From assembly GCA_028583605.1 (NCBI GenBank), contig CM053329.1, positions 17,028,080 through 17,092,079 of the forward strand: a DNA stretch of 64,000 bases, read 5' to 3'. The DNA is from Dastarcus helophoroides (lineage: Eukaryota; Arthropoda; Insecta; Coleoptera; Bothrideridae). Made by a program: the position numbers and the translations under genes. Shown one piece after another: positions 3,480-58,390 of the stretch (its first letter is position 1; the number at the start of each line of letters is the position of its first letter). Below the pieces are notes generated by a model. That model was not told the origin of the DNA and ran no database searches. It was given only the letters and a program-made list of their open reading frames with translations.

Positions 3480-3690
3480 GTAACCCTCTGAAGATGATAG
3501 CTTGGCTATCGAGACACGTTAGAGCCACGTAGAGACACGTTCAGAGAGATACTCTCAGAGATATCTCTTTGAAGATGGCTGTCAAAACGTCAAAACGTGT
3601 TAGTGCAACCTTTGTTGTATTTTTTAATCTTTCTTGGTTTCAGGGGGCAAGATTTGTATTTCAATTTTTGAAGATAAACACCAGCACCAA
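3480..3690 (+). mobile_element. Foldback hammerhead-like element, copy 1 (degenerate)
   Basis: The copy starts with CTGAAGA at 3488-3494, then helix II GATAG (3496-3500), loop cttgg, CTATC (3506-3510). In the intact copies at 23.6 and 30.5 kb helix II reads GACAG/CTGTC, so this is a compensated base change. The following GAAA is mutated to GAGA. A second, more degraded motif follows (tttgaagatggctgtc), then the family's common 3' arm (aacctttgttgta, tcttggtttcaggg, gtatttcaatttttgaagat). The left arm is missing. Confidence 0.7.
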
Positions 3691-12197: not shown

Positions 12198-12417
12198 ATA
12201 TTATGAGGAAGTTTAGGAACTCATTTGTGCAAGTTAAAAAAAAAGCTAAATGCACCAAGTCGATCTAAAAATGCTGTTATCTAACAAAAGAAAAATCTTA
12301 AATGCATTGAAAAATAAATCAAACTCAAATATTTGACAATAAATTGATGGGATTTTTTTTAATCATGTTTTCGAATCTTTGAGTTTTAAGTCAAAATTAT
12401 ACAAAGAAATAATTTTG

Positions 12418-12645
12418 GTGAAACAAACTGGTCCTTAGTTATTTTCAAGAATTGAAATACAAAGCTTGTCCCCTGAAACCAAAAAAAGATTAAAAAACAC
12501 AACAGAGGTTGTTCTATCTCTGCTGCATCTCTCTGAAGATGATAGCTTGGCAATCGAAACGCGCTGAGCAACCTCTGTTGTGTTTTTTAATCCTTCTTGG
12601 TTTCAGGGGACAGATTTGTATTTCAATTTTTAAAAATGTCGCTTT
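12418..12645 (+). mobile_element. Foldback hammerhead-like element, copy 2
   Basis: The left arm (ctggtccttagttatttt, then cttgtcccctgaaacc) and right arm (ggtttcaggggacagattt) are inverted copies around a central hinge. On plus, CTGAAGA lies at 12533-12539, then GATAG, loop cttgg, CAATC (one helix mismatch) and GAAA at 12556-12559. The short frames on both strands here share the peptide PLLCFLI because the arms are palindromic; they are not genes. Confidence 0.75.
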
Positions 12646-22440: not shown

Positions 22441-23045
22441 TATGCTTAACAAAAAATGTCGACTTTTTGTAAAGACATTTTAAATTTTTTTTAAATTTCG
22501 GTAATTTTCTCTCAGAAATTTTGCTTTGTTTTCCTAATTTTTTTTTGAAATATTGACTTTTCCTGGAGATTTTGTCTTTAAAATATTTTTTCTTGTAGAA
22601 ATTTTGATTTCTCTCTCTTTGTTTTGAAAATTTAAAAGTTTTTTAATGAAATTTTAATATTTTAAAGTTCAGTTTATTTTGTAATTTTAAATTTCCAAAT
22701 CAAATTAGAGAGAAATCAAAATTTCTACAAGAAAAAATATTTTAAAGACAAAATCTCCAGCAAAAGTGGATTTTTCAAAAACAAAATTAGGAAAACAAAG
22801 CAAAATTTCTGAGAGAAAATTACCGAAATTTGAAAAAAAATTAAAATGTCTTTACAAAAATTCGACATTTTTTTTCTACAAATTTTGATTTCTCTCTAAT
22901 TTGATTTGGAAATTTAAAATTACAAAATAAACTGAACTTTAAAATATTAAAATTTTGTTAAAAAACTTTTAAATTTTCAAAACAAAGAGAGAGAAATCCA
23001 AATTTCTACAAGAAAAAATATTTTAAAGACAAAATCTCCAGGAAA
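22440..23045. repeat. Nested inverted duplications
   Basis: Segment 22455-22615 is inverted at about 22707-22870, and segment 22562-22725 is inverted again at about 22877-23042. Shared words include ctggagattttgtcttt and its complement aaagacaaaatctccag, and gatttctctct with agagagaaatc. The result is a cluster of hairpin-forming arms over 600 bp. Confidence 0.75.
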
Positions 23046-23436
23046 AGCAACAATTTTTGTGTAAAATGTTTAGAGGAAAACACAAATGTTATAAGAAAAA
23101 AAAGCAAAATTTCTTAGAGCAAAAAATCTAAATTTGAAAAAAAATTGAAATATCTTAAGAAAAAAATGAAATTTTTTTGTTTTTTCCAAAATGTTGAAAT
23201 AATTGGGGTTTTTCAAAACATTTTTTGTCAAAACTACAAAATAAAATGAACCTTAAATTATCAAAGTATCGTGAAAAAACTTGACATTTTTAAAGCAAAT
23301 TAGAGGAACATAAAGAAAAATCTGGAGAAGTTGGAATTTCTAGAAGAAATTTTAAGAACAACACTTTTTTTTTATATTTTAAAAAAAAATTTTTATTTTT
23401 AAGTATTTCTTCCTCATTGTTCCCTTTCCATGTTAT

Positions 23437-23483
23437 GCACTGCTGACGAGCTCAAATGAGAGCGAAACACCGATGTCCAGTGC
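23437..23483 (+). ncRNA. Type I hammerhead ribozyme, complete
   Basis: Helix I is GCACTG (23437-23442) with CAGTGC (23478-23483), six perfect pairs. The core CTGACGA is at 23443-23449 and GAAA at 23464-23467. Helix II is GCTC (23450-23453) with GAGC (23460-23463), loop aaatga. Helix III is ACA (23467-23469) with TGT (23474-23476), loop ccga; A23467-U23476 is the usual 15.1-16.1 pair. The cleavage triplet is GTC and predicted cleavage follows 23477. All invariant hammerhead positions are present. Type I hammerheads with short helix III occur in retrozymes, Penelope-like elements and some insect satellites; activity here is inferred. Confidence 0.87.
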
Positions 23484-23598
23484 TACAACTTTTTTTATGT
23501 ATTTTTTTATATTTTCCTAATTTATCAAAAAAACAAAATTTCTATTTTTTCCATATCTAATTTTTGGTCTCCTATTTTTCATTATTCCTATTCTATGT

Positions 23599-23863
23599 TT
23601 GATGGAACGGAGCGGTCCTTGGTTATCTTCAAAAATTGAAACACAGAACTTGTCCCCTGAAACCAAGAAAAATTAAAAAACACAACAAAGGTTGCCCTAA
23701 CGCGTTTCGACAGCCAAGCTGTCATCCTCAGAGAGAAACTCAAGTTTCATGTTTCATGTTTCTCTCTGAAGATGACAGCTTGGCTGTCGAAACGCGTTAG
23801 AGCAACCTTTGTTGTGTTTTTTAATTTTTCTTGGTTTCAGGGGACAAGTTCTGTGTTTCAATT
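23599..23863 (+). mobile_element. Foldback hammerhead-like element, copy 3, with 12-bp target duplication
   Basis: The insert is bounded by CCTATTCTATGT at 23587-23598 and 23864-23875. The paralogous repeat at 42669-42680 has one copy of this 12-mer and no insert, so it is the empty site. The 265-bp insert is largely palindromic. On plus: helix I CTCT (23762-23765) with AGAG (23799-23802), core CTGAAGA (23766-23772), helix II GACAG/CTGTC (23774-23778, 23784-23788), GAAA (23789-23792) and a two-pair helix III ending GTT. The minus-strand arm carries the same motif with CTGAGGA. One unpaired U between core and helix II departs from the hammerhead consensus. Confidence 0.85.
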
Positions 23864-24029
23864 CCTATTCTATGTAAAATAAAATAACCTCTTAATTTGT
23901 GAACTGTCATGAAGTGACGTTTTCAATAAATTTAAATATCACGCAGTCGCATTTCAAAAACTGTCAATTTCAGAAAATTGTCAACAAACCATAAAAATTT
24001 AAATATTTCCAAACTGGGCCGAAGAAATG

Positions 24030-25090
24030 TTAAATAAATTGAAAAACACTTTCAAGAAAAATGGAAATTTCGAGAAAATTTATTTTTATAAAATATTTAG
24101 GAAAAATGGAAACTTTTCAGAAAAAAATCAAAATATCCTAAAAAAATCGAAATATCTGAAAAAAAACTCAAAATTTTAATACAAAATGAGATTTGAGGTA
24201 AAAGTTCGAAGATACCGTCCTTACTGATTTTTTAGAGAAATAGTAAAATGCGAGATGAGTTGAATTTAGATTTTTTCTTGAAATTGTAATTATTTTCCCA
24301 AAATATTGACATTTTCAAAGAAATTTAAATTTTTTTCTTAACACTTTAATTTCTGCTCGAAATAATTTCTTCTTTGAAACTTTTACAAAAATTAGTTTTC
24401 GAAAATGTGATTTTGATTAAAACTAAAAATAAAATAGGTTTTTAAATATCGTAACTTCATGAAAAAAACATAAAATTTCTATAAAAAGAAATCAGAGAGG
24501 ATTTAAAATTTCTACAAAAAATTTTGTAATGAAAAATGTTCAGAAAATTTTGAGAAAAAAGCTCATAAGCTGCAGTTCCACAGTGCCTATACGCCAGCCG
24601 CCACTGGTTCCGACAAGTAAGTACTAAGGAATCAACGAAGGTCAAGCGTGTGAATCTCAGACTATCTTTAATGTTTAAATTTAAGTTGAACGAATACTAT
24701 TAACGACATTTAAGTGTGAAAAATTTAAATTTAAACGCAAATTTTCAATTAAAAATCAGCAAGTTTTAAAAACTTTATTGAAATTTAAAAAAAAATAAAA
24801 ATTTGTTTACAAAATCTAAATTTACAGTTAAAAAAAGGCATTTTCAAGTTTGCGTTGTAAGTTTTGGTAAAAGTTTAAAAATTTTACATTCAAGTCAAAA
24901 TTTTGTCAATTTAGATAGGTCAAAATTTTTGTTTGGAAAAGTTGCAATCATAATTTTAGGGAAAAAGATGAAAATAAAAAGTATGACCTTGGGACTTTGA
25001 GAAAGTACTAGAAGTTAATAAAAAAATTCTTTATATTTGGGGATTAAAGTGTAAGTAAAAATATCCTAATTTCGAGTTTAAAGTCAATAT
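24030..25090. other. AT-rich DNA, no gene recognised
   Basis: Only scattered short frames. A GC-richer patch at 24560-24640 has no recognisable product. Confidence 0.35.
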
Positions 25091-30528: not shown

Positions 30529-30901
30529 TTTTTCTTGATGGAACGGACTGGTCCTTGGTTATCTTCAAAAATTGAAACACAGAACTTGTCCCCTGAAACC
30601 AAGAAAAATTAAAAAACACAACAAAGGTTGCTCTAACGCGTTTCGACAGCCAAGCTGTCATCTTCAGAGAGAAACTAACATCTAATCTTAAAATTTTAAG
30701 ATTAGATGTTAGTTTCTAACGCGTTTCGACAGCCAAGCTGTCATCTTCAGAGAGAAACTAACATCTAATCTTAAAATTTTAAGATTAGATGTTAGTTTCT
30801 CTCTGAAGATGACAGCTTGACTGTCGAAACGCGTTAGAGCAACCTTTGTTGTGTTTTTTAATTTTTCTTGGTTTCAGGGGACAAGTTCTGTGTTTCAATT
30901 T
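30529..30901 (+). mobile_element. Foldback hammerhead-like element, copy 4, with 12-bp target duplication
   Basis: TACATATTTTAT flanks the insert at 30517-30528 and 30902-30913. The 373-bp element holds three hammerhead-like motifs: two on minus (core complements tcttcag at 30661-30667 and 30744-30750) and one on plus (CTGAAGA 30803-30809, helix II GACAG/CTGTC, GAAA 30826-30829, cleavage triplet GTT ending 30835, helix I CTCT/AGAG). Extra half-units with attagatgttagtttc are duplicated in the hinge. The left end extends about 45 bp (ggaacggactggtccttgg) beyond the palindrome. Confidence 0.85.
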
Positions 30902-30913
30902 TACATATTTTAT

Positions 30914-33120: not shown

Positions 33121-36100
33121 GACTTCAAAAAACTTAAAAGTTCGAGGTTACGTAGTGTCAAGGTCACGTGCAGATATGGTCTTGTATAATTAGGACCACG
33201 TGAGCCCAAGGTCATTAAGGTCGCGTATAATTAGGATCACGTGAGCCCAAGGTCATTTAAATTCAGGATTATGTCAGCGCAAGGTCGTGTGTGCTTAAGG
33301 CCACGTTAGCTCGAAATTACGAGAGTTTAAAAGCGCATAAACTCAAGGTGTTTGGAATTTCTTTAGAAAATGTTGACTTGTTTTAAGATTAAACATGTAA
33401 ACAATAGTTTTTCTTAACATTTCAAAATTTTACTTAAAAAAACTGAATAGTTCAAGGTTACATAGGATCAAAGTCATGTGCTTGCGTGAAATCAGGGTCA
33501 GTGCGCTCAAGGTCGTCTGAGTTTAAGATTACGTTAGTTTAAGGTCGCGTGTATTTAAGGTGATGTTAGCTCAAAATCAGGTAAATTCAAAATCGCCTAA
33601 ACCTAAGGTCACTTGAGGCCAAGGTCATGCTTGCTCGAAGTCACGTTAACTCAAGGTCACGTGTCACTAGCGATTAAGGTCACCTATCATATGAGCTAAA
33701 GATCACGTGTCATGTGAGATCAAGGTAACGTGTCATGTAATCCAAAGGTCACGTGTCATGTAAGTTCAAGGTCACGTGTCACGTGAGTTCAATGACACGT
33801 GTCACATGAGCTCAAGGTCACTGTGTACGATCGCGTGCTCTCAAGATAAATATCCAAGGTCACGTAAGCTCAAGGTCACTGTGCAGGGTCACGTGAGCGC
33901 AAGGTCACTGTGCGAGAGTTTAAAAACGCATAAACTCAAGGTGTTTCGAATTTCTTTAGAAAATTTTGACTTGTTTTAAGGTTAAACATGTAAACAATAG
34001 TTTTTTCTATCATTTCAAAATTTTACTATAAAAAAACTGAGCAGTTCAAGGTTACGTAGGGTCAAAGTCATGTGTAGACAAGCTCGCGTGAAATCAGGGT
34101 CACGTGAGCTCAAGGTCGTCTGAGTTTACGATTACGTTAGTTTAAGGTCGCGTGTATTTAAGGTGATGTTAGCTCAAAATCAGGTAAATTCAAAATCGCC
34201 TAAACCTAAGGTCACTTGAGGCCAAGGTCATGCTTGCTCGAAGTCACGTTAACTCAAGGTCACGTGTCACTTGCGTTTAAGCTCACAGATCATATGGGCT
34301 AAAGATCACGTATCATGTGAGTTCAAGGTTACGTGTCATGTAATCCAAAGGTCACGTGTTACGTAAGTTTAAGGTCACGTATCACGTGAGTTCAATGACA
34401 CGTGTCACATGAGCGCAAGGTCACTGTGTACAATCGCGTGTTCTCAAGATAAATATCCAAGGTCACGTAAGCTCAAGGTCACTGTGCAGGGTCACGCGAG
34501 CGCAAGGTCACTGTGCGAGAGTTTAAAAACGCATAAAGTCAAGGTGTTTCGAATTTCTTTAGAAAATTTTGACTTTTTTAAGATTAAACATGTAAACAAT
34601 ATTTTTTTTTAACATTTCAAAATTTTACTATAAAAAAACTGAGCAGTTCAAGGTTACGTAGGGTCAAACTCATGTGCAGACAAGCTTGCGTGAAATTAGG
34701 GTCATGTGAGCTCAAGGTCGTTTGAGTTTAAGATTATGTTAGTCTAAGGTCGCGTGTATTTAAGGTGATGTTAGCTCAAATTCAGGTAAATTCAGAATCG
34801 CCAAAACCTAAGGTCACTTGAGGCCAAGGTCATGCTTGCTCGAAGTCACGTTAACTCAAGGTCACGTGTCACCTGCGATTAAGCTCACATAACATATGGG
34901 CTAAAGATCACGTGTCACGTGAGTTCAAGGTCACGTGTCACATAAGTTCAAGGTCACGTGTCGCGTTATTTCAATATCACGTGCAAGGTCACTGTGTACG
35001 ATCGCGTGCTCTCAAGATAAATATCCAAGGTCGCGTAAGCTCAAGGACACTGTGCAGGGTCACGTGAGCGCAAGGTCACTGTGCGAGAGTTTAAAATCGC
35101 ATAAACTCAAGGTGTTTCGAATTTTTTTAGAAAATTTTGACTTGTTTTAAACTTAAACATGTAAACAATAGTTTTTCTTAACATTTCAAAATTTTACTAT
35201 AAAAAAACTGAGCAGTTCAAGGTTACGTAGGGTCAAAGTCATGTGTAGACAGGCTCGCGTGAAATCAGGGTCACGTGAGATCAAGGTCGTCTGAGTTTAA
35301 GATTACGTTAGTTTAAGGTCGCGTGTATTTAAGGTGGTGTTAGCGCAAAATCAAGTTAATTCAAAATCGCCTAAAGTTTAGGTCACTTGAGGAGAAGGCC
35401 ATGCTAGCTTGAAGACACGTAAACTCAAGGTCACGTGTCACTTGCGCTCAAGCTCACCTATCATATGAGCTAAAGATCACGTGTCATGTGAGTTCAAGGT
35501 AACGTGTCATGTAATCCAAAGGTCACGTGTCATGTAAGTTCAAGGTCACGTATCACGTGAGTTCAATGACACGTGTCACATGAGCTCAAGGTCACTGTGT
35601 ACGATCGCGTGCTCTCAAGATAAATATCCAAGGTCACGTAAGCTCAAGGTCACTGTGCAGGGTCACGTGAGCGCAAGGTCACTGTGCGAGAGTTTAAAAA
35701 CGCATAAACTCAAGGTGTTTCGAATTTCTTTAGAAAATTTTGACTTGTTTTAAGATTAAACATGTAAACAATAGTTTTTCTTAACATTTCAAAATTTTAC
35801 TATAAAAAAACTGAGCAGTTCAAGGTTACGTAGGGTCAAACTCATGTGCAGACAAGCTCGCGTGAAATTAGGGTCACGTGAGCTCAAGGTCGTCTGAGTT
35901 TAAGATTACGTTAGTTTAAGTTGTATTTAAGGTGATGTTAGCTCAAAATCAGGTAAATTCAAAATGACCTAAAGTTAAGGTCACTTGAGGCAAGGTCATG
36001 CTAGATCGGAATCACGTGAACTCAAAGTCACGTGTCACTTGCGTTTAAGCTCACAGATCATATGGGCTAAAGATCACGTGTCACGTGAGTTCAAGGTCAC

Positions 36101-36745
36101 GTGTCATGTAATCTAAAGGTCACGTGTCACGTAAGTTCAGGGTCACGTGTCACGTGAGTTAAATGTCACGTGAGGTAAATGTCACATGTCACATAAACTC
36201 AAGGTCACTGTGTACGATCACGAACTCTCAAGATAACTATCCATGAACGCGTAAGCTCAAGTTCACTATGCAGGGTCACGTGAGCGCAAGGTTACTGTGC
36301 AAGATCATGCGAACTCGGGACTATGTCAGCTCAAGGTTAGTGTCTAAGGTCACCTAGGGTCAAAGTCACTGTACAAGGTCGCGTAAGCTAAAGGTCACCG
36401 TGCAAGATCACGTGAGCGCAAGGTCACGTGAGCGCTAAGTCACGTGAATGCAACGTCACTGCATCGGCACGCGAGCTCAACGTCATGTCAGCTCAAGGTC
36501 ATTGTGCAAACTTAAATAAGATCAAGATCATTGCACAAGGTCACGCGCGTACAAGGTCACTGTCCAAAGGCCCATTAGCTCAAGGTCACTGTGCAAGGTC
36601 ACATGGGATCAAGGTCACTGCGCAAAGTCACATACGTTCAAGATCACCGTGCAAGGTTGTGTCAGCGCAAGGTCACTGTGCAAAGTCACATAGGCTCAAG
36701 ATCATGTCAGCTCAAGGTCATTCCCATTCAAGGTTACTGTGTGAA
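33120..36745 (+). repeat. AGGTCA/CACGTG satellite with a 600-bp higher-order unit
   Basis: The basic unit is about 20 bp, of the type caaggtcac followed by gtgagct or tgtgc. Higher-order copies are marked by gagagttt at 33321, 33914, 34517, 35085 and 35688, spacing 593, 603, 568 and 603 bp, each with the conserved AT-rich insert cgaatttctttagaaaattt. By eye, 33914-34516 has about nine exact AGGTCA and several CACGTG. TCAAGGTCA matches the monomer site of NR5A/FTZ-F1-type nuclear receptors (YCAAGGYCR) and CACGTG is a bHLH E-box. The frames at 33776, 34409 and 34935 are the same repeat read three times. Confidence 0.92.
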
Positions 36746-36767
36746 ATTCACTTCACACAGTAACCTT
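36730..36767. repeat. Perfect 16-bp palindrome at the orientation switch
   Basis: aaggttactgtgtgaa (36730-36745) is the exact inverse of ttcacacagtaacctt (36752-36767), with the 6-bp spacer attcac. Units left of it read caaggtcac and units right of it read gtgaccttg. Confidence 0.93.
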
Positions 36768-37150
36768 AAACGTATGTGAACTTGCGTAGTGACCTTGACC
36801 CTATGTAACTTTGCACAATGACCTTGAGATAACGTGACCTTGCACAGTGACCTTGAGCTGACATGACCTCGAGCTCGCGTGACGCTGCAGCGACCTTGCG
36901 CTAACGTGAACTTTCACGGTGAACTTGATCTTACGCGACCTTGCACAGTGACCTTGACTTTAAGTAACCTTGCACAGTGACCTAGAGTTGACATGGTAAC
37001 GAGTTCGCGTGACCTTTCACAGTGAACCTTAAATTCACAAGAATTCAAAATCATCTGAGTTCAAGATCATGTGAGCTCTAGAACATGTGATAGAGTCACG
37101 TGGGTTCAAAGTCACGTGATTTTGAAAACACAGGACCTTAAGGTCATGTA
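36752..37150 (-). repeat. AGGTCA satellite, inverted segment
   Basis: The units read gtgaccttgcac and gaccttgagctgacatgacc on plus, that is, the satellite in opposite orientation, out to about 37030. A short plus-oriented remainder (agatcatgtgagct, gtcacgtgggttc) follows. Confidence 0.85.
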
Positions 37151-42389: not shown

Positions 42390-42891
42390 ACTCAAAATTG
42401 CGACTTTCAAAATTCAGCAACAACAGTGATTTTTTTTTAATTGTTCTTTATTTGAAATTTTAGAACTTCTATAAAGTTGTGTACCTTTTTTTTGAAATTT
42501 TTAATTTTTTTCAATCATGCTTCTTTGCACTGCTGACAAGCTCAAATGAGAGCGAAACATCGATGTCCAGTGCTACAACCTTTTTTATGTATTTTTTATA
42601 TTTTCATAATTTATCAAAAAAACCAAATTTTTTCGTATCCAATTTTGGCCTTCTATTTTTAATTTTTTCCTATTCTATGTAAAATAAAGTAACCAATTAT
42701 TATGTCAACTGTCATGAGGTAACGTTTTAAATAAATTTAAATAGCACGTAGTCATTTTTCAAATGCTGTTTTCCAATATTGTCAGCAAGCAAGAAAATAT
42801 TTAAATATTTCCAAACTGGGCCTAAGAAATATTAAATAAAATTAATAAACGTGATGTTTCCGATCAATAAGAGTTCACCATGAAGAATAAA
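42390..42891 (+). repeat. Hammerhead-bearing repeat, copy 2 (empty site)
   Basis: It aligns with 23390-24030 and carries the uninterrupted target CCTATTCTATGT at 42669-42680. It continues through aaatatttccaaactgggcc into taaataaaattaataaacg and gagttcaccatgaagaataa, after which the heptamer array starts. Confidence 0.8.
42527..42573 (+). ncRNA. Type I hammerhead, core-mutated copy
   Basis: Helix I GCACTG (42527-42532) and CAGTGC (42568-42573), helix II GCTC/GAGC and helix III ACA/TGT are all intact, with loop tcga instead of ccga. The core reads CTGACAA (42533-42539): the invariant G8 is A at 42538. G8 acts in catalysis in hammerheads, so this copy should be inactive or very slow. Confidence 0.8.
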
Positions 42892-45560
42892 TCGTATTTC
42901 ATATTTCGTATTTCGTATTTCGTATCTCGTATCTCGTATTTCGTATTTCGTATTTCGTATTTCGTATTTCGTATTTCGTATCTTGCATCTTGTATTTTGT
43001 ATCTTATATCTTATATCTCGTACCTTGTATCTTGTATCTTATATCTTGTATCTTGCATCTTGCATATTGTATCTTGTATCTGGTATTTCGTATTTCGAAT
43101 TTCGTATTTCGTATTTCATATTCCGTATTTCTTATTTCGTATTTCGTATTTCATATTTCGTATTTTGTATTTCGTATTTCGCATCTTGTATTTTGTGTCT
43201 TGTATCTTCTATTTGGTATTTTGCATCTTGTATCTTTTATCTTGTGTCTTGAATCTTGTACTTTGTATTTTGTACCTTGTATCTTATATTTTATATCTTA
43301 TATCTTGTATTTTGTATCTTGTATCTTATATCTTATTTCGTATCTCGTATCTCGCATTATATTATATCTCGTATTTCATATCTTGTATCTCGTATCTTGT
43401 ATCTCGTTTCTCACTTCTCGCATCTCGCATCGCGTAACTTGTATCTTTTACCTTGTATCCTGTGTCTTGCATCTTGTATCTTATATCCTGTGTCTTGCAT
43501 CTTGTATCCTGTTTCTTGTATCTTGCATCTTGTTTCTTGTATCTTGTATCCTGTGTCTTGCATCTTGCATCTTGTATCTTGTATCCTGTGGCTTGTATCT
43601 TGTATCTTGCATCTTGCATCTTCTATCTTGTCTCTTGTATATTGAATCTTGTATCTTGCATCTTGCATCTTGTATTTTGTATCTTATATCTCGTATCTCG
43701 TATCTTGTATCTTATATCTTGTATATTATATCTTGTATCTGGTATTTCGTATTTCGTATTTCATATTTCGTATTTCATATTTCGTATTTCGTATTTCGTA
43801 TTTCATATTTCGTATTTTGTATTTCGTATTTCGCATCTTGTATTTTGTGTCTTGTATCTTCTATTTGATATTTTGCATCTTGTATCTTGCATCTTTTATC
43901 TTGTACTTTGTATTTTGTATTTTGTACCTTGTATTTTGTATCTTATGTCTTGTATTTTGCATCTTGTATCTTGTATCTTATATCTTGTATCTTGTATCTT
44001 GTATGTTGAATCTTGCATCTTGCATTTTGCAGCTTGCATCTTGCATCTTCTATCTTGTAACTTGCCTCTCGTATATTGAATCTTGTATCTTGTATCTTGC
44101 ATCTTGTATCCTGTGGCTTGTATCTTGTATCTTCTATCTTGTCTCTTGTATATTGAATCTTGTATCTTGTATCTTGCATCTTGTATCTTGTATATTGTAT
44201 CTTGTATCTTATATATTGTATCTTGTTAAATAAAATTAATAAACGTAATGTTTCCGATCAATAAGAGTTTACCATGAAAAATAAACCGTATTTCATATTT
44301 CGTTTCTCGTATCTCGTATTTCGTATCTTACACCTTGCATCTTGTATTTTGTATCTTATATCTCGTACCTCGTATCTTGTATCTTATATCTTGTATCTGG
44401 TATTTCGTATTTCGAATTTCGTATTTCTTATTTCGTATTTCATATTTCGTATTTCATATTTCGTATTTTGTATTTCGTATTTCGCATCTTGTATTTTGTA
44501 TTTTGTGTCTTGTATCTTCTATTTGGTATTTTGCATCTTGTATCTTGCATCTTTTATCTTGTACTTTGTATTTTGTATTTTGTACCTTGTATCTTGTATT
44601 TTGTATCTTATATCTTGTATTTTGTATATTGTATCTTATATCTTATATCTTGTATCTTGTATCTTGCATCTTGCATTTTGCATTTTGCATATTGCATCTT
44701 GTATCTTGTATCTTGTAACTTGTTTCTCGTATATTGAATCTTGTATCTTGTATCTTGCATCTTGTATCTTGTATCCTGTGGCTTGTATCTTGTATCTTGC
44801 ATCTTCTATCTTGTCTCTTGTATATTGATTCTTGTATCTTGTATCTTGCATCTTGTATCTTGTATATTGTATCTTGTATCTTATATATTGTATCTTGTTA
44901 AATAAAATTAATAAACGTAATGTTTCCGATCAATAAGAGTTCACCATGAAGAATAAATCGTATTTCATATTTCGTATTTCGTTTCTCGTATCTCGTATCT
45001 TGCATCTTGTATTTTGTATCTTATATCTCGTACCTCGTATCTTGAATCTTATATCTTGTATTTTTTATCTTGTATATTATATCTTGTATCTGGTATTTCG
45101 TATTTCGAATTTCGTATTTCGTATTTCATATTTCGTATTTCATATTTCGTATTTTGTATTTCGTATTTTGTGTCTTGTATCTTCTATTTGGTATTTTGCA
45201 TCTTGTATCTTGCATCTTTTATCTTGTATCTTGTACTTTGTATTTTGTACCTTGTATCTTGTATTTTGTATCTTATATCTTGTATTTTGTATCTTGTATC
45301 TTGTATCTTATATCTTATATCTTGTATCTTGTATCTTGTATCTTGCATCTTGTATCTTGTATTTTGTATCTTGCATCTTGCATCTTGCATCTTGTATCCT
45401 GTGTCTTGCATCTTGCATCTTGTATCTTGTATCCTGTGGCTTATATCTTGTATCTTGTATCTTGCATCTTGTATCTTGCCTCTCGTATATTGAATCTTGT
45501 ATCTTGTATCTTGCATCTTGTATTTTGTATCTTGTATCTTGTATTTATACCGTATATTCA
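42889..45560. repeat. Heptanucleotide array (TCGTATT / CTTGTAT type) with a 672-bp higher-order unit
   Basis: The unit is 7 bp, with domains of tcgtatt, cttgtat and cttgcat variants alternating in the same order. Linkers containing aaataaaattaataaacg and cgatcaataagagtt recur at 42827-42891, 44225-44286 and 44897-44958; the last two are 672 bp apart. Because 7 is coprime to 3, all three plus frames stay open and encode a heptapeptide periodicity (e.g. SYFVFRI, SCILYLV), and the minus frames read YKIQDTR. Frames of up to 292 residues here are artefacts of the repeat. Confidence 0.93.
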
Positions 45561-57845: not shown

Positions 57846-58276
57846 TTAATAGTTATACTGATTGCTCTCAATATTATCGTAAACGTAAGTGTGCCCAAAA
57901 TCCCCGTAACTAGCAAAATCATCATCCAACTCCCAGGGTCTGTTAGACAAATCCTGGAAGTTCACATTCAGCGTAAAACTGCTGTCAGCCGTCTCTTTCT
58001 GAGCCAAAGGTACACAATCACTAAAATACACAAAATCCTTACACTGTCCAGTCGTGCCCCCAGCTGCCGTCGAATAAAGTCCATAATTCACGTTACTGGT
58101 GGCGATCTTCTTCAACCCTTGAATGGAAGTAAGCAGGAGAGCCATTTTGGCCAACAGCAACGCTTTACCGCCCAATACCGCCAAAAACTGGAATCCCATA
58201 GGGATCATTATCATACCCACGGCCACTATGCCGAACATCATCAGGGATAACATCATGTTTCTGTGACGTCGTCTCG
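57846..58276 (-). CDS. Last coding exon of an Osiris-family (DUF1676) protein
   Basis: After acceptor TTCTTTGCAG (58286-58277) the exon opens in phase 1 (completing a split codon) with RRRHRN, then MMLSLMMFGIVAVGMIMIPM, GFQFLAVLGGKALLLAKMAL and LLTSIQGLKKIATSNVNYGLY. Basic residues, a long hydrophobic segment, the K-A-L-L-(L/V)-x-K-x-A-L core and YGLY are the signature of the Osiris C-terminal domain. The acidic tail has two cysteines and ends with YNY. Osiris proteins are insect-specific, secreted or membrane proteins of the endosomal/cuticle-forming epithelium, usually in clusters. The 5' exons, with the signal peptide and Cys-rich part, are not in view. The plus-strand frame 57711-58250 is a shadow. 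Confidence 0.9.
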
Positions 58277-58390
58277 CTGCAAAGAAGAAAGTTGTTAACC
58301 ACCGTTGTTGGCAACGATTTTGTGACTTTTTAAAACTTCGTGGCCTAACACATTATTTACATAGTTATAGAATAATTAGATCAATAATTT
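58277..58390 (-). other. 3' end of an Osiris intron
   Basis: The acceptor lies at 58277-58286. The intron continues upstream at least to the satellite, which is therefore probably intronic. Confidence 0.6.

What the first reader, a model, noticed from the sequence alone, without database searches (positions are those of the whole stretch)
23437..23483. A complete type I hammerhead ribozyme in an insect repeat
All core bases are present (CTGACGA, GAAA, GTC). Helix I has six perfect pairs, helix II four, helix III three, in 47 nt. The odds of this by chance in AT-rich DNA are very low. It lies in a dispersed non-coding repeat, as in retrozymes, Penelope-like elements and some insect satellites, so the repeat may be made and circularised through RNA.
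Basis: partly seen in the sequence, partly recalled or inferred. Interest (0 to 1): 0.92.

Follow-up and report, generated by a model that had tools for sequence, protein, structure and literature searches.

The report
Hammerhead ribozyme in Penelope-type retroelement
A self-cutting RNA motif in an insect genome sits inside a small mobile element with well over a thousand near-identical ribozyme copies, and the sampled copies carry the fingerprint of the Penelope class of retrotransposons, which bears on the open question of what moves such ribozyme elements.

Summary
Window 23437-23483 is a complete type I hammerhead: all core bases, helices of 6, 4 and 3 pairs, cleavage expected after 23477. 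It scores 38.4 bits (E 1.1e-7) with Rfam HH9, below that family's cut-off of 52. The host genome holds 1811 matches to the family's 47-mer with up to 3 mismatches, none to the reversed control.

The carrier is not a satellite but an ORF-less retroelement with a 707-nt unit. Of 87 insertions examined, all 54 with two detected arms are head-to-head. 63 of 87 have a target-site duplication, mostly 12-13 bp; 56 of these 63 have one end with, and one without, a tail of about 36 nt. That is the signature described for Penelope-like elements (PLEs). A second, nested element inside the window copy shows it too.

The hammerhead is better conserved than its flanks. No pile-up of copy ends at the cleavage site was found (low power), so cleaved linear RNA is probably not the usual template. 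Cleavage, circular RNA and the helper protein are unproven.

Best reading: a non-autonomous, canonical-hammerhead element moved by PLE machinery, each insertion built from two reverse-transcription starts.

The parts
23437..23483 (+). Type I hammerhead ribozyme; cleavage expected between 23477 and 23478
   Evidence: read directly; HH9 38.4 bits, below cut-off 52; 1811 genomic matches to the family 47-mer with up to 3 mismatches
23443..23449 (+). catalytic core CTGACGA (C3 to A9)
   Evidence: read directly
23464..23467 (+). catalytic core GAAA (G12 to A15.1)
   Evidence: read directly
23365..24049 (+). Copy 1 of the 707-nt-unit element: 23365-23598 = unit 267-500, 23856-24049 = unit 479-669 (tail-less end); interrupted by the nested insertion
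   Evidence: possible 8-bp target duplication AACACTTT
23599..23860 (.). Nested second element with the same architecture: head-to-head arms (23634-23739 / 23758-23863 as found, the last bases shared with the duplication), about 35 extra nt (tail) on the left side only
   Evidence: 98% complementary arms; one-sided tail and duplication
23584..23598 (+). target duplication ATTCCTATTCTATGT of the nested insertion, left copy
23861..23875 (+). target duplication ATTCCTATTCTATGT of the nested insertion, right copy
23766..23802 (+). minimal-hammerhead-like motif (CTGAAGA ... GAAAC) in one arm of the nested element; assigned by eye, no Rfam support
42526..42888 (+). Copy 2 of the element (older subfamily); its hammerhead (core from 42533) carries G8 to A at 42538 and is probably inactive
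30535..30902 (.). another copy of the nested element family, 12-bp target duplication TACATATTTTAT, tail on one side

Best explanation
The ribozyme belongs to a short retroelement without an ORF (non-autonomous) that is copied and inserted by the machinery of a Penelope-like element (PLE). Shown from genomic copies: a 707-nt unit; templates at least partly tandem or circular; insertions head-to-head with variable 5' extents; one outer end tailed (unit 707), the other tail-less (about unit 668-678); target duplication mostly 12-13 bp. Inferred: a PLE protein cuts both target strands about 12-13 bp apart, each free end primes reverse transcription at one of two internal RNA sites about 36 nt apart, one site per strand, and the two cDNAs are then joined. 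Also inferred: the hammerhead cleaves multimeric transcripts between units (unit 379|380) and is kept by selection on source copies. What it does for the element is not shown: the templates that became sampled insertions were mostly uncut or re-ligated at the hammerhead.
For: All 54 two-armed insertions of 87 are in -/+ order. 63 of 87 have a duplication of at least 8 bp, 40 of them 12 or 13 bp. 56 of those 63 have one tail-less and one tailed end. The same one-sided tail with 15- and 12-bp duplications in the two duplicated copies of the nested element in the window. 22 of 144 arms read through the 707|1 junction. PLEs are described with inverted pLTRs, an optional 30-40 bp tail, 8-10 bp duplications, tandem units, two internal RT start sites and extension of both target strands (PMC11167929; PMC3846280). 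Long PLE reading frames exist in this genome. Ribozyme kept better than flanks in copy 2: 54 of 55 against 229 of 266 bases, p = 0.0099.
Against: The element has no ORF and its ends do not resemble those of the one PLE inspected (L095), so the helper is not identified; that PLE copy itself showed no inverted arm or duplication. 24 of 87 insertions gave no duplication, and among them 5 were called tail-less at both ends and 1 tailed at both. The loci were chosen for carrying the hammerhead, the C1 sample for a perfect one. End classes were defined after seeing the data. Selection on the ribozyme rests mainly on one unbiased copy.
Confidence: 0.78

Rival explanations
1. A metazoan retrozyme in the strict sense: hammerheads cut tandem transcripts, the units are ligated into circles, and the circles are the templates of reverse transcription.
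For: Canonical hammerhead as in retrozymes, not the minimal form of PLEs (PMC7229834). 22 of 144 arms cross the 707|1 junction and the longest is 1.57 units. In L062 the two units of one arm do not differ in 289 positions. Most sampled arms carry the hammerhead uncut (biased by sampling).
Against: Unit 707 nt against the published 170-400 nt; no direct tandem among the 11 close pairs listed on C1. The two units of one arm differ at 9 of 291 (L014) and 14 of 395 (L022) positions, with 3 and 1 diagnostic differences after masking. A linear partial-tandem transcript explains the junction equally well.
Confidence: 0.3
2. Inverted arms arise by self-priming: one cDNA folds back and copies itself, as proposed for rotifer PLEs.
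For: Opposite arms usually share their template sequence: median divergence 1.5% against 4.2% between insertions, 3 of 30 comparisons identical. Proposed in PMC3846280.
Against: Simple fold-back copying would give two identical outer ends; 56 of the 58 duplication-supported insertions with both ends classified have unlike ends.
Confidence: 0.1
3. A foldback or MITE-like DNA transposon in which the hammerhead is a passenger.
For: Head-to-head arms look like long terminal inverted repeats.
Against: The two outer ends are not the same, arm lengths vary, duplications range from 8 to 18 bp, and arms can hold more than one unit.
Confidence: 0.04
4. The hammerhead is a chance or dead motif without function.
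For: Below the HH9 cut-off; best computed fold is not the hammerhead; copy 2 lost G8.
Against: 1811 copies, control 0; higher conservation than flanks; full core.
Confidence: 0.07

Closest known systems
Penelope-like elements: PAc/Poseidon of Anolis (PMC11167929) and Pen2a of Adineta vaga (PMC3846280)
   Same: Partial tandem units, head-to-head arrangement, tail of 30-40 bp at one end, short target duplications, a hammerhead in the repeated part
   Different: No ORF in the 707-nt unit; hammerhead canonical, not minimal; tail asymmetry nearly strict here, called optional there; duplications longer than the 8-10 bp given for Adineta
Metazoan non-LTR retrozymes (PMC7229834, PMC7761336)
   Same: Non-coding, AT-rich, canonical type I hammerhead, thousands of copies, no autonomous functions
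   Different: 707-nt unit instead of 170-400; dispersed head-to-head copies instead of direct tandems; circular RNA not shown; PLE-type ends visible
Rfam Hammerhead_HH9 (RF02275)
   Same: Core apart from the free position 7, helix II GCUC/GAGC and the UAC on the 3' side of the stem I internal loop agree (alignment)
   Different: Helices I and III differ in sequence with pairing kept; loop II differs; 38.4 bits, below the cut-off of 52

Membership tests
Type I hammerhead ribozyme | core CUGANGA, GAAA and H17 with three helices, helix I open | tested here: met
Type I hammerhead ribozyme | score above a curated Rfam cut-off | tested here: not met
   no gathering hit; 38.4 of 52 bits with HH9, E 1.1e-7
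Type I hammerhead ribozyme | self-cleavage at the predicted site | not testable with these tools
   needs an in vitro assay
Penelope-like element | ORF with telomerase-like RT, usually with GIY-YIG endonuclease | tested here: not met
   the 707-nt unit holds no ORF of note (by reading); hence at most non-autonomous
Penelope-like element | inverted or tandem pLTR-like arms | tested here: met
   54 of 87 insertions two-armed, all head-to-head; 22 of 144 arms cross a unit junction
Penelope-like element | tail of 30-40 bp at one end | tested here: met
   56 of 63 duplication-supported insertions have one tailed and one tail-less end
Penelope-like element | short target duplications | tested here: met
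   63 of 87, 8-18 bp, mode 12
Metazoan retrozyme | canonical type I hammerhead in a non-coding repeat | tested here: met
Metazoan retrozyme | direct tandem repeats of about 170-400 bp | tested here: not met
   unit 707 nt; 0 direct tandems among 11 close pairs listed on C1; partial tandems only
Metazoan retrozyme | circular RNA made through the hammerhead | not testable with these tools
   no RNA data; indirect evidence mixed
MITE or foldback DNA transposon | both ends alike and fixed-length target duplication | tested here: not met

The most novel reading that the evidence does not exclude
Each insertion records two reverse-transcription events that started at two different fixed sites about 36 nt apart on the RNA, one on each strand of the cut target, with almost no exceptions (56 of 58 duplication-supported insertions with both ends classified). 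This implies a paired enzyme whose two subunits are committed to different start sites, and it would mean that canonical-hammerhead, retrozyme-like elements are moved by PLE proteins.
Probability: 0.55. Interest if true: 0.75.

Novelty: new variant of a known kind. Interest (0 to 1): 0.6.

Why it matters
A review states that animal retrozyme repeats show no motif that reveals which autonomous element moves them; PLEs are only candidates (PMC7761336, passages; PMC7229834). Here an ORF-less element with a canonical hammerhead carries the PLE integration signature in dozens of sampled insertions, so the link becomes testable. The nearly strict one-tailed rule gives a genomic counterpart to the two RT start sites seen in vitro for one PLE (PMC11167929) and argues against simple self-priming. 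More than a thousand similar copies in one genome are a large natural record of PLE-type integration.

Tried and rejected
Rfam microRNA matches at 23628-23869 and overlapping were set aside: they cover the palindrome of the nested insertion and are below their cut-offs. The four viral contigs matches L001-L004 are 53-55% GC contigs in which, by eye, the hammerhead helices do not pair: chance. ARAGORN on six loci: no tRNA. Ends at the cleavage site: pattern one search gave 0 matches, but its power is low (only 10 of 67 distinct local sites carry the exact 28-mer) and it misses joins with microhomology such as L062, whose arm starts at unit 379/380. A relaxed pattern and a control pattern did not complete. 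Do the two arms come from different RNAs? Mostly not by diagnostic variants; L010 has 4 diagnostic differences in 392 sites, not conclusive. A Pfam GIY-YIG search of the genome did not complete; the second open piece of the L095 PLE gave no Pfam match, so 'GIY-YIG' there is read by eye. Conservation in five other old copies (p 0.0025 to 0.039) was not used as independent evidence because those copies were chosen for a perfect ribozyme. A first reading as a DNA transposon with terminal inverted repeats was dropped once the two ends proved unlike.

Full report
Observation. The stated bases are present at 23437-23483. A strict descriptor finds this site alone in the window and one site in 300 shuffles of the window. 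Rfam gives no match at gathering level and HH9 at 38.4 bits, E 1.1e-7, cut-off 52. Core (except the free position 7) and helix II agree with HH9, while helices I and III differ but still pair. On thermodynamics alone a non-hammerhead fold is 2.5 kcal/mol better.

Host and copy number. The window lies in a 538.9-Mb assembly of 50 contigs. A reading frame at 57846-58352 (-) matches Pfam DUF1676, E 1.2e-13, which I recall as the insect Osiris family. The 47-mer written with the family's commoner loop III (TCGA; the window copy has CCGA) has 916 + 895 matches with up to 3 mismatches and none for the reversed control; only the first 100 places were listed, 92 on contig C1 and 8 on C2.

Anatomy of the element. 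Thirty loci came by similarity (one, L005, is the window copy) and 60 regions around zero-mismatch places of contig C1 were taken. They were mapped onto a 707-nt unit read from L031. The core starts at unit 345, cleavage is at 379|380, the tailed 3' end is at 707, and the tail-less end lies at about 668-678 in an A-run followed by CA. In the 89 loci L006-L094 I separated 87 insertions, after dropping two loci that repeat the same insertions and clusters under 150 bp. 54 have two detected arms, all in -/+ (head-to-head) order; 33 show one arm, 17 plus and 16 minus. 63 of 87 have a target duplication of at least 8 bp: 24 of 12 bp, 16 of 13 bp, the other 23 from 8 to 18 bp. Of those 63, 56 have one tail-less and one tailed end; 3 were unclassified/tailed, 2 unclassified/tail-less, 1 tail-less at both (L070, an 8-bp duplication, doubtful) and 1 tailed at both (L075; by eye a truncated tail-less end). 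Of the 24 without a duplication: 10 unclassified/tail-less, 6 unclassified/tailed, 5 tail-less at both, 1 tailed at both, 1 mixed, 1 unclassified at both; many are single arms whose 5' end the classifier cannot read. If ends were drawn independently at even odds, 56 or more mixed of 58 would have a probability of about 6e-15 (my arithmetic). The classes were defined after looking at the data.

Template. 22 of 144 arms run through the 707|1 junction and the longest is 1111 nt, so the RNA was at least partly tandem or circular. In L062 the two units of one arm do not differ in 289 positions; in L022 they differ at 14 of 395, while the opposite arm differs from one of them at 1 of 269; in L014 they differ at 9 of 291. 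With low-complexity sites masked, L014 keeps 3 diagnostic differences and L022 one. This speaks against a single monomer circle for L014 and weakly for L022. Opposite arms of an insertion have a median divergence of 1.5% (30 comparisons, several from one locus) against 4.2% between insertions; in 13 of 30 the partner is closer than any other insertion.

Role of the ribozyme. Among 42 sampled arms lacking the hammerhead, 5' ends are spread from 20 to 685 without a pile-up at 380. A genome-wide pattern for ends exactly at 380 gave none, with low power. The published in vitro PLE does not need cleavage for insertion either (PMC11167929). Yet the ribozyme is better kept than its surroundings: in the older copy at 42526, not chosen for its ribozyme, 54 of 55 bases agree with the unit against 229 of 266 elsewhere, Fisher p = 0.0099. 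Its one change is G8 to A.

A second case in the same window. The palindrome 23599-23860 inside copy 1 is itself such an insertion: arms 98% complementary, about 35 nt extra on one side only, a 15-bp target duplication, and a minimal-hammerhead-like motif seen by eye. A relative at 30535-30902 has a 12-bp duplication and the same one-sided tail; relatives at 12414-12637 and 3486-3680 gave no clear duplication.

A PLE of the genome. L007/L095 hold a PLE into which this element has inserted, with duplication TCTCATTCCGTTT. It has a 595-aa open piece with RVT_1, E 1.3e-11, a repeated pLTR 98% identical and a minimal-hammerhead-like motif around the first ATG of the frame. 97 matches to its RT piece were listed, 94 of 2151 candidates having been scored. 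Its ends do not resemble those of the 707-nt unit and I saw no inverted arm or duplication around that one copy, so the helper is unknown.

Comparison with what is known. PLE tails, inverted pLTRs and extension of both strands are published (PMC11167929, parts 1-2 of 4 read; PMC3846280, passages). That metazoan retrozymes may use PLEs is a published proposal (PMC7229834, parts 1-3 of 6 and passages; PMC7761336, passages). PMC12910113 was looked at by passages only and says nothing of tails or hammerheads. In seven paper searches (listings) I saw no report of a canonical-hammerhead, ORF-less element with PLE-type ends, nor of a strict one-tailed rule. The library lacks most subscription journals, so this is weak.

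Verdict. Real ribozyme motif, real mobile element, carrier identified as a non-autonomous element with Penelope-type integration. Cleavage, circularity and the helper protein remain to be shown.

Noticed in passing
42826-45544: A 7-bp (GTATCTT) satellite array holds three copies of the element's 3' end region (ending at 42888, 44282 and 44954), each followed directly by the array's first bases; copy 2 may therefore run on into a diverged next unit rather than end at 707.
   Followed up: partly
23599-23863, 30535-30902, 12414-12637, 3486-3680: Four copies of a second element family with minimal-hammerhead-like motifs; the palindromes trigger several sub-threshold Rfam microRNA matches.
   Followed up: partly
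L095 2079-6619 (G000 C10): A PLE in partial tandem with a minimal-hammerhead-like motif in each pLTR; its right end lies roughly 105 nt after the ATG, near where RT starts in the published PAc element. Related RT frames, some over 700 aa without stops, are common in the genome.
   Followed up: partly
L031 1164-1353 (unit 1-190): Less AT-rich start of the unit; with the preceding CATGAAGAAT it reads as a short frame followed by GTGAGT, possibly the remnant of an ORF start and an intron donor. By eye only.
   Followed up: no
22451-23177: AT-rich stretch just upstream of copy 1 that is about 77% identical to its own reverse complement.
   Followed up: no
57846-58352 (-): Reading frame with Pfam DUF1676 (E 1.2e-13), an insect marker as I recall.
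   Followed up: partly
33640-37090: Degenerate tandem arrays of 16-29 bp units around GGTCACGTG and similar words.
   Followed up: no
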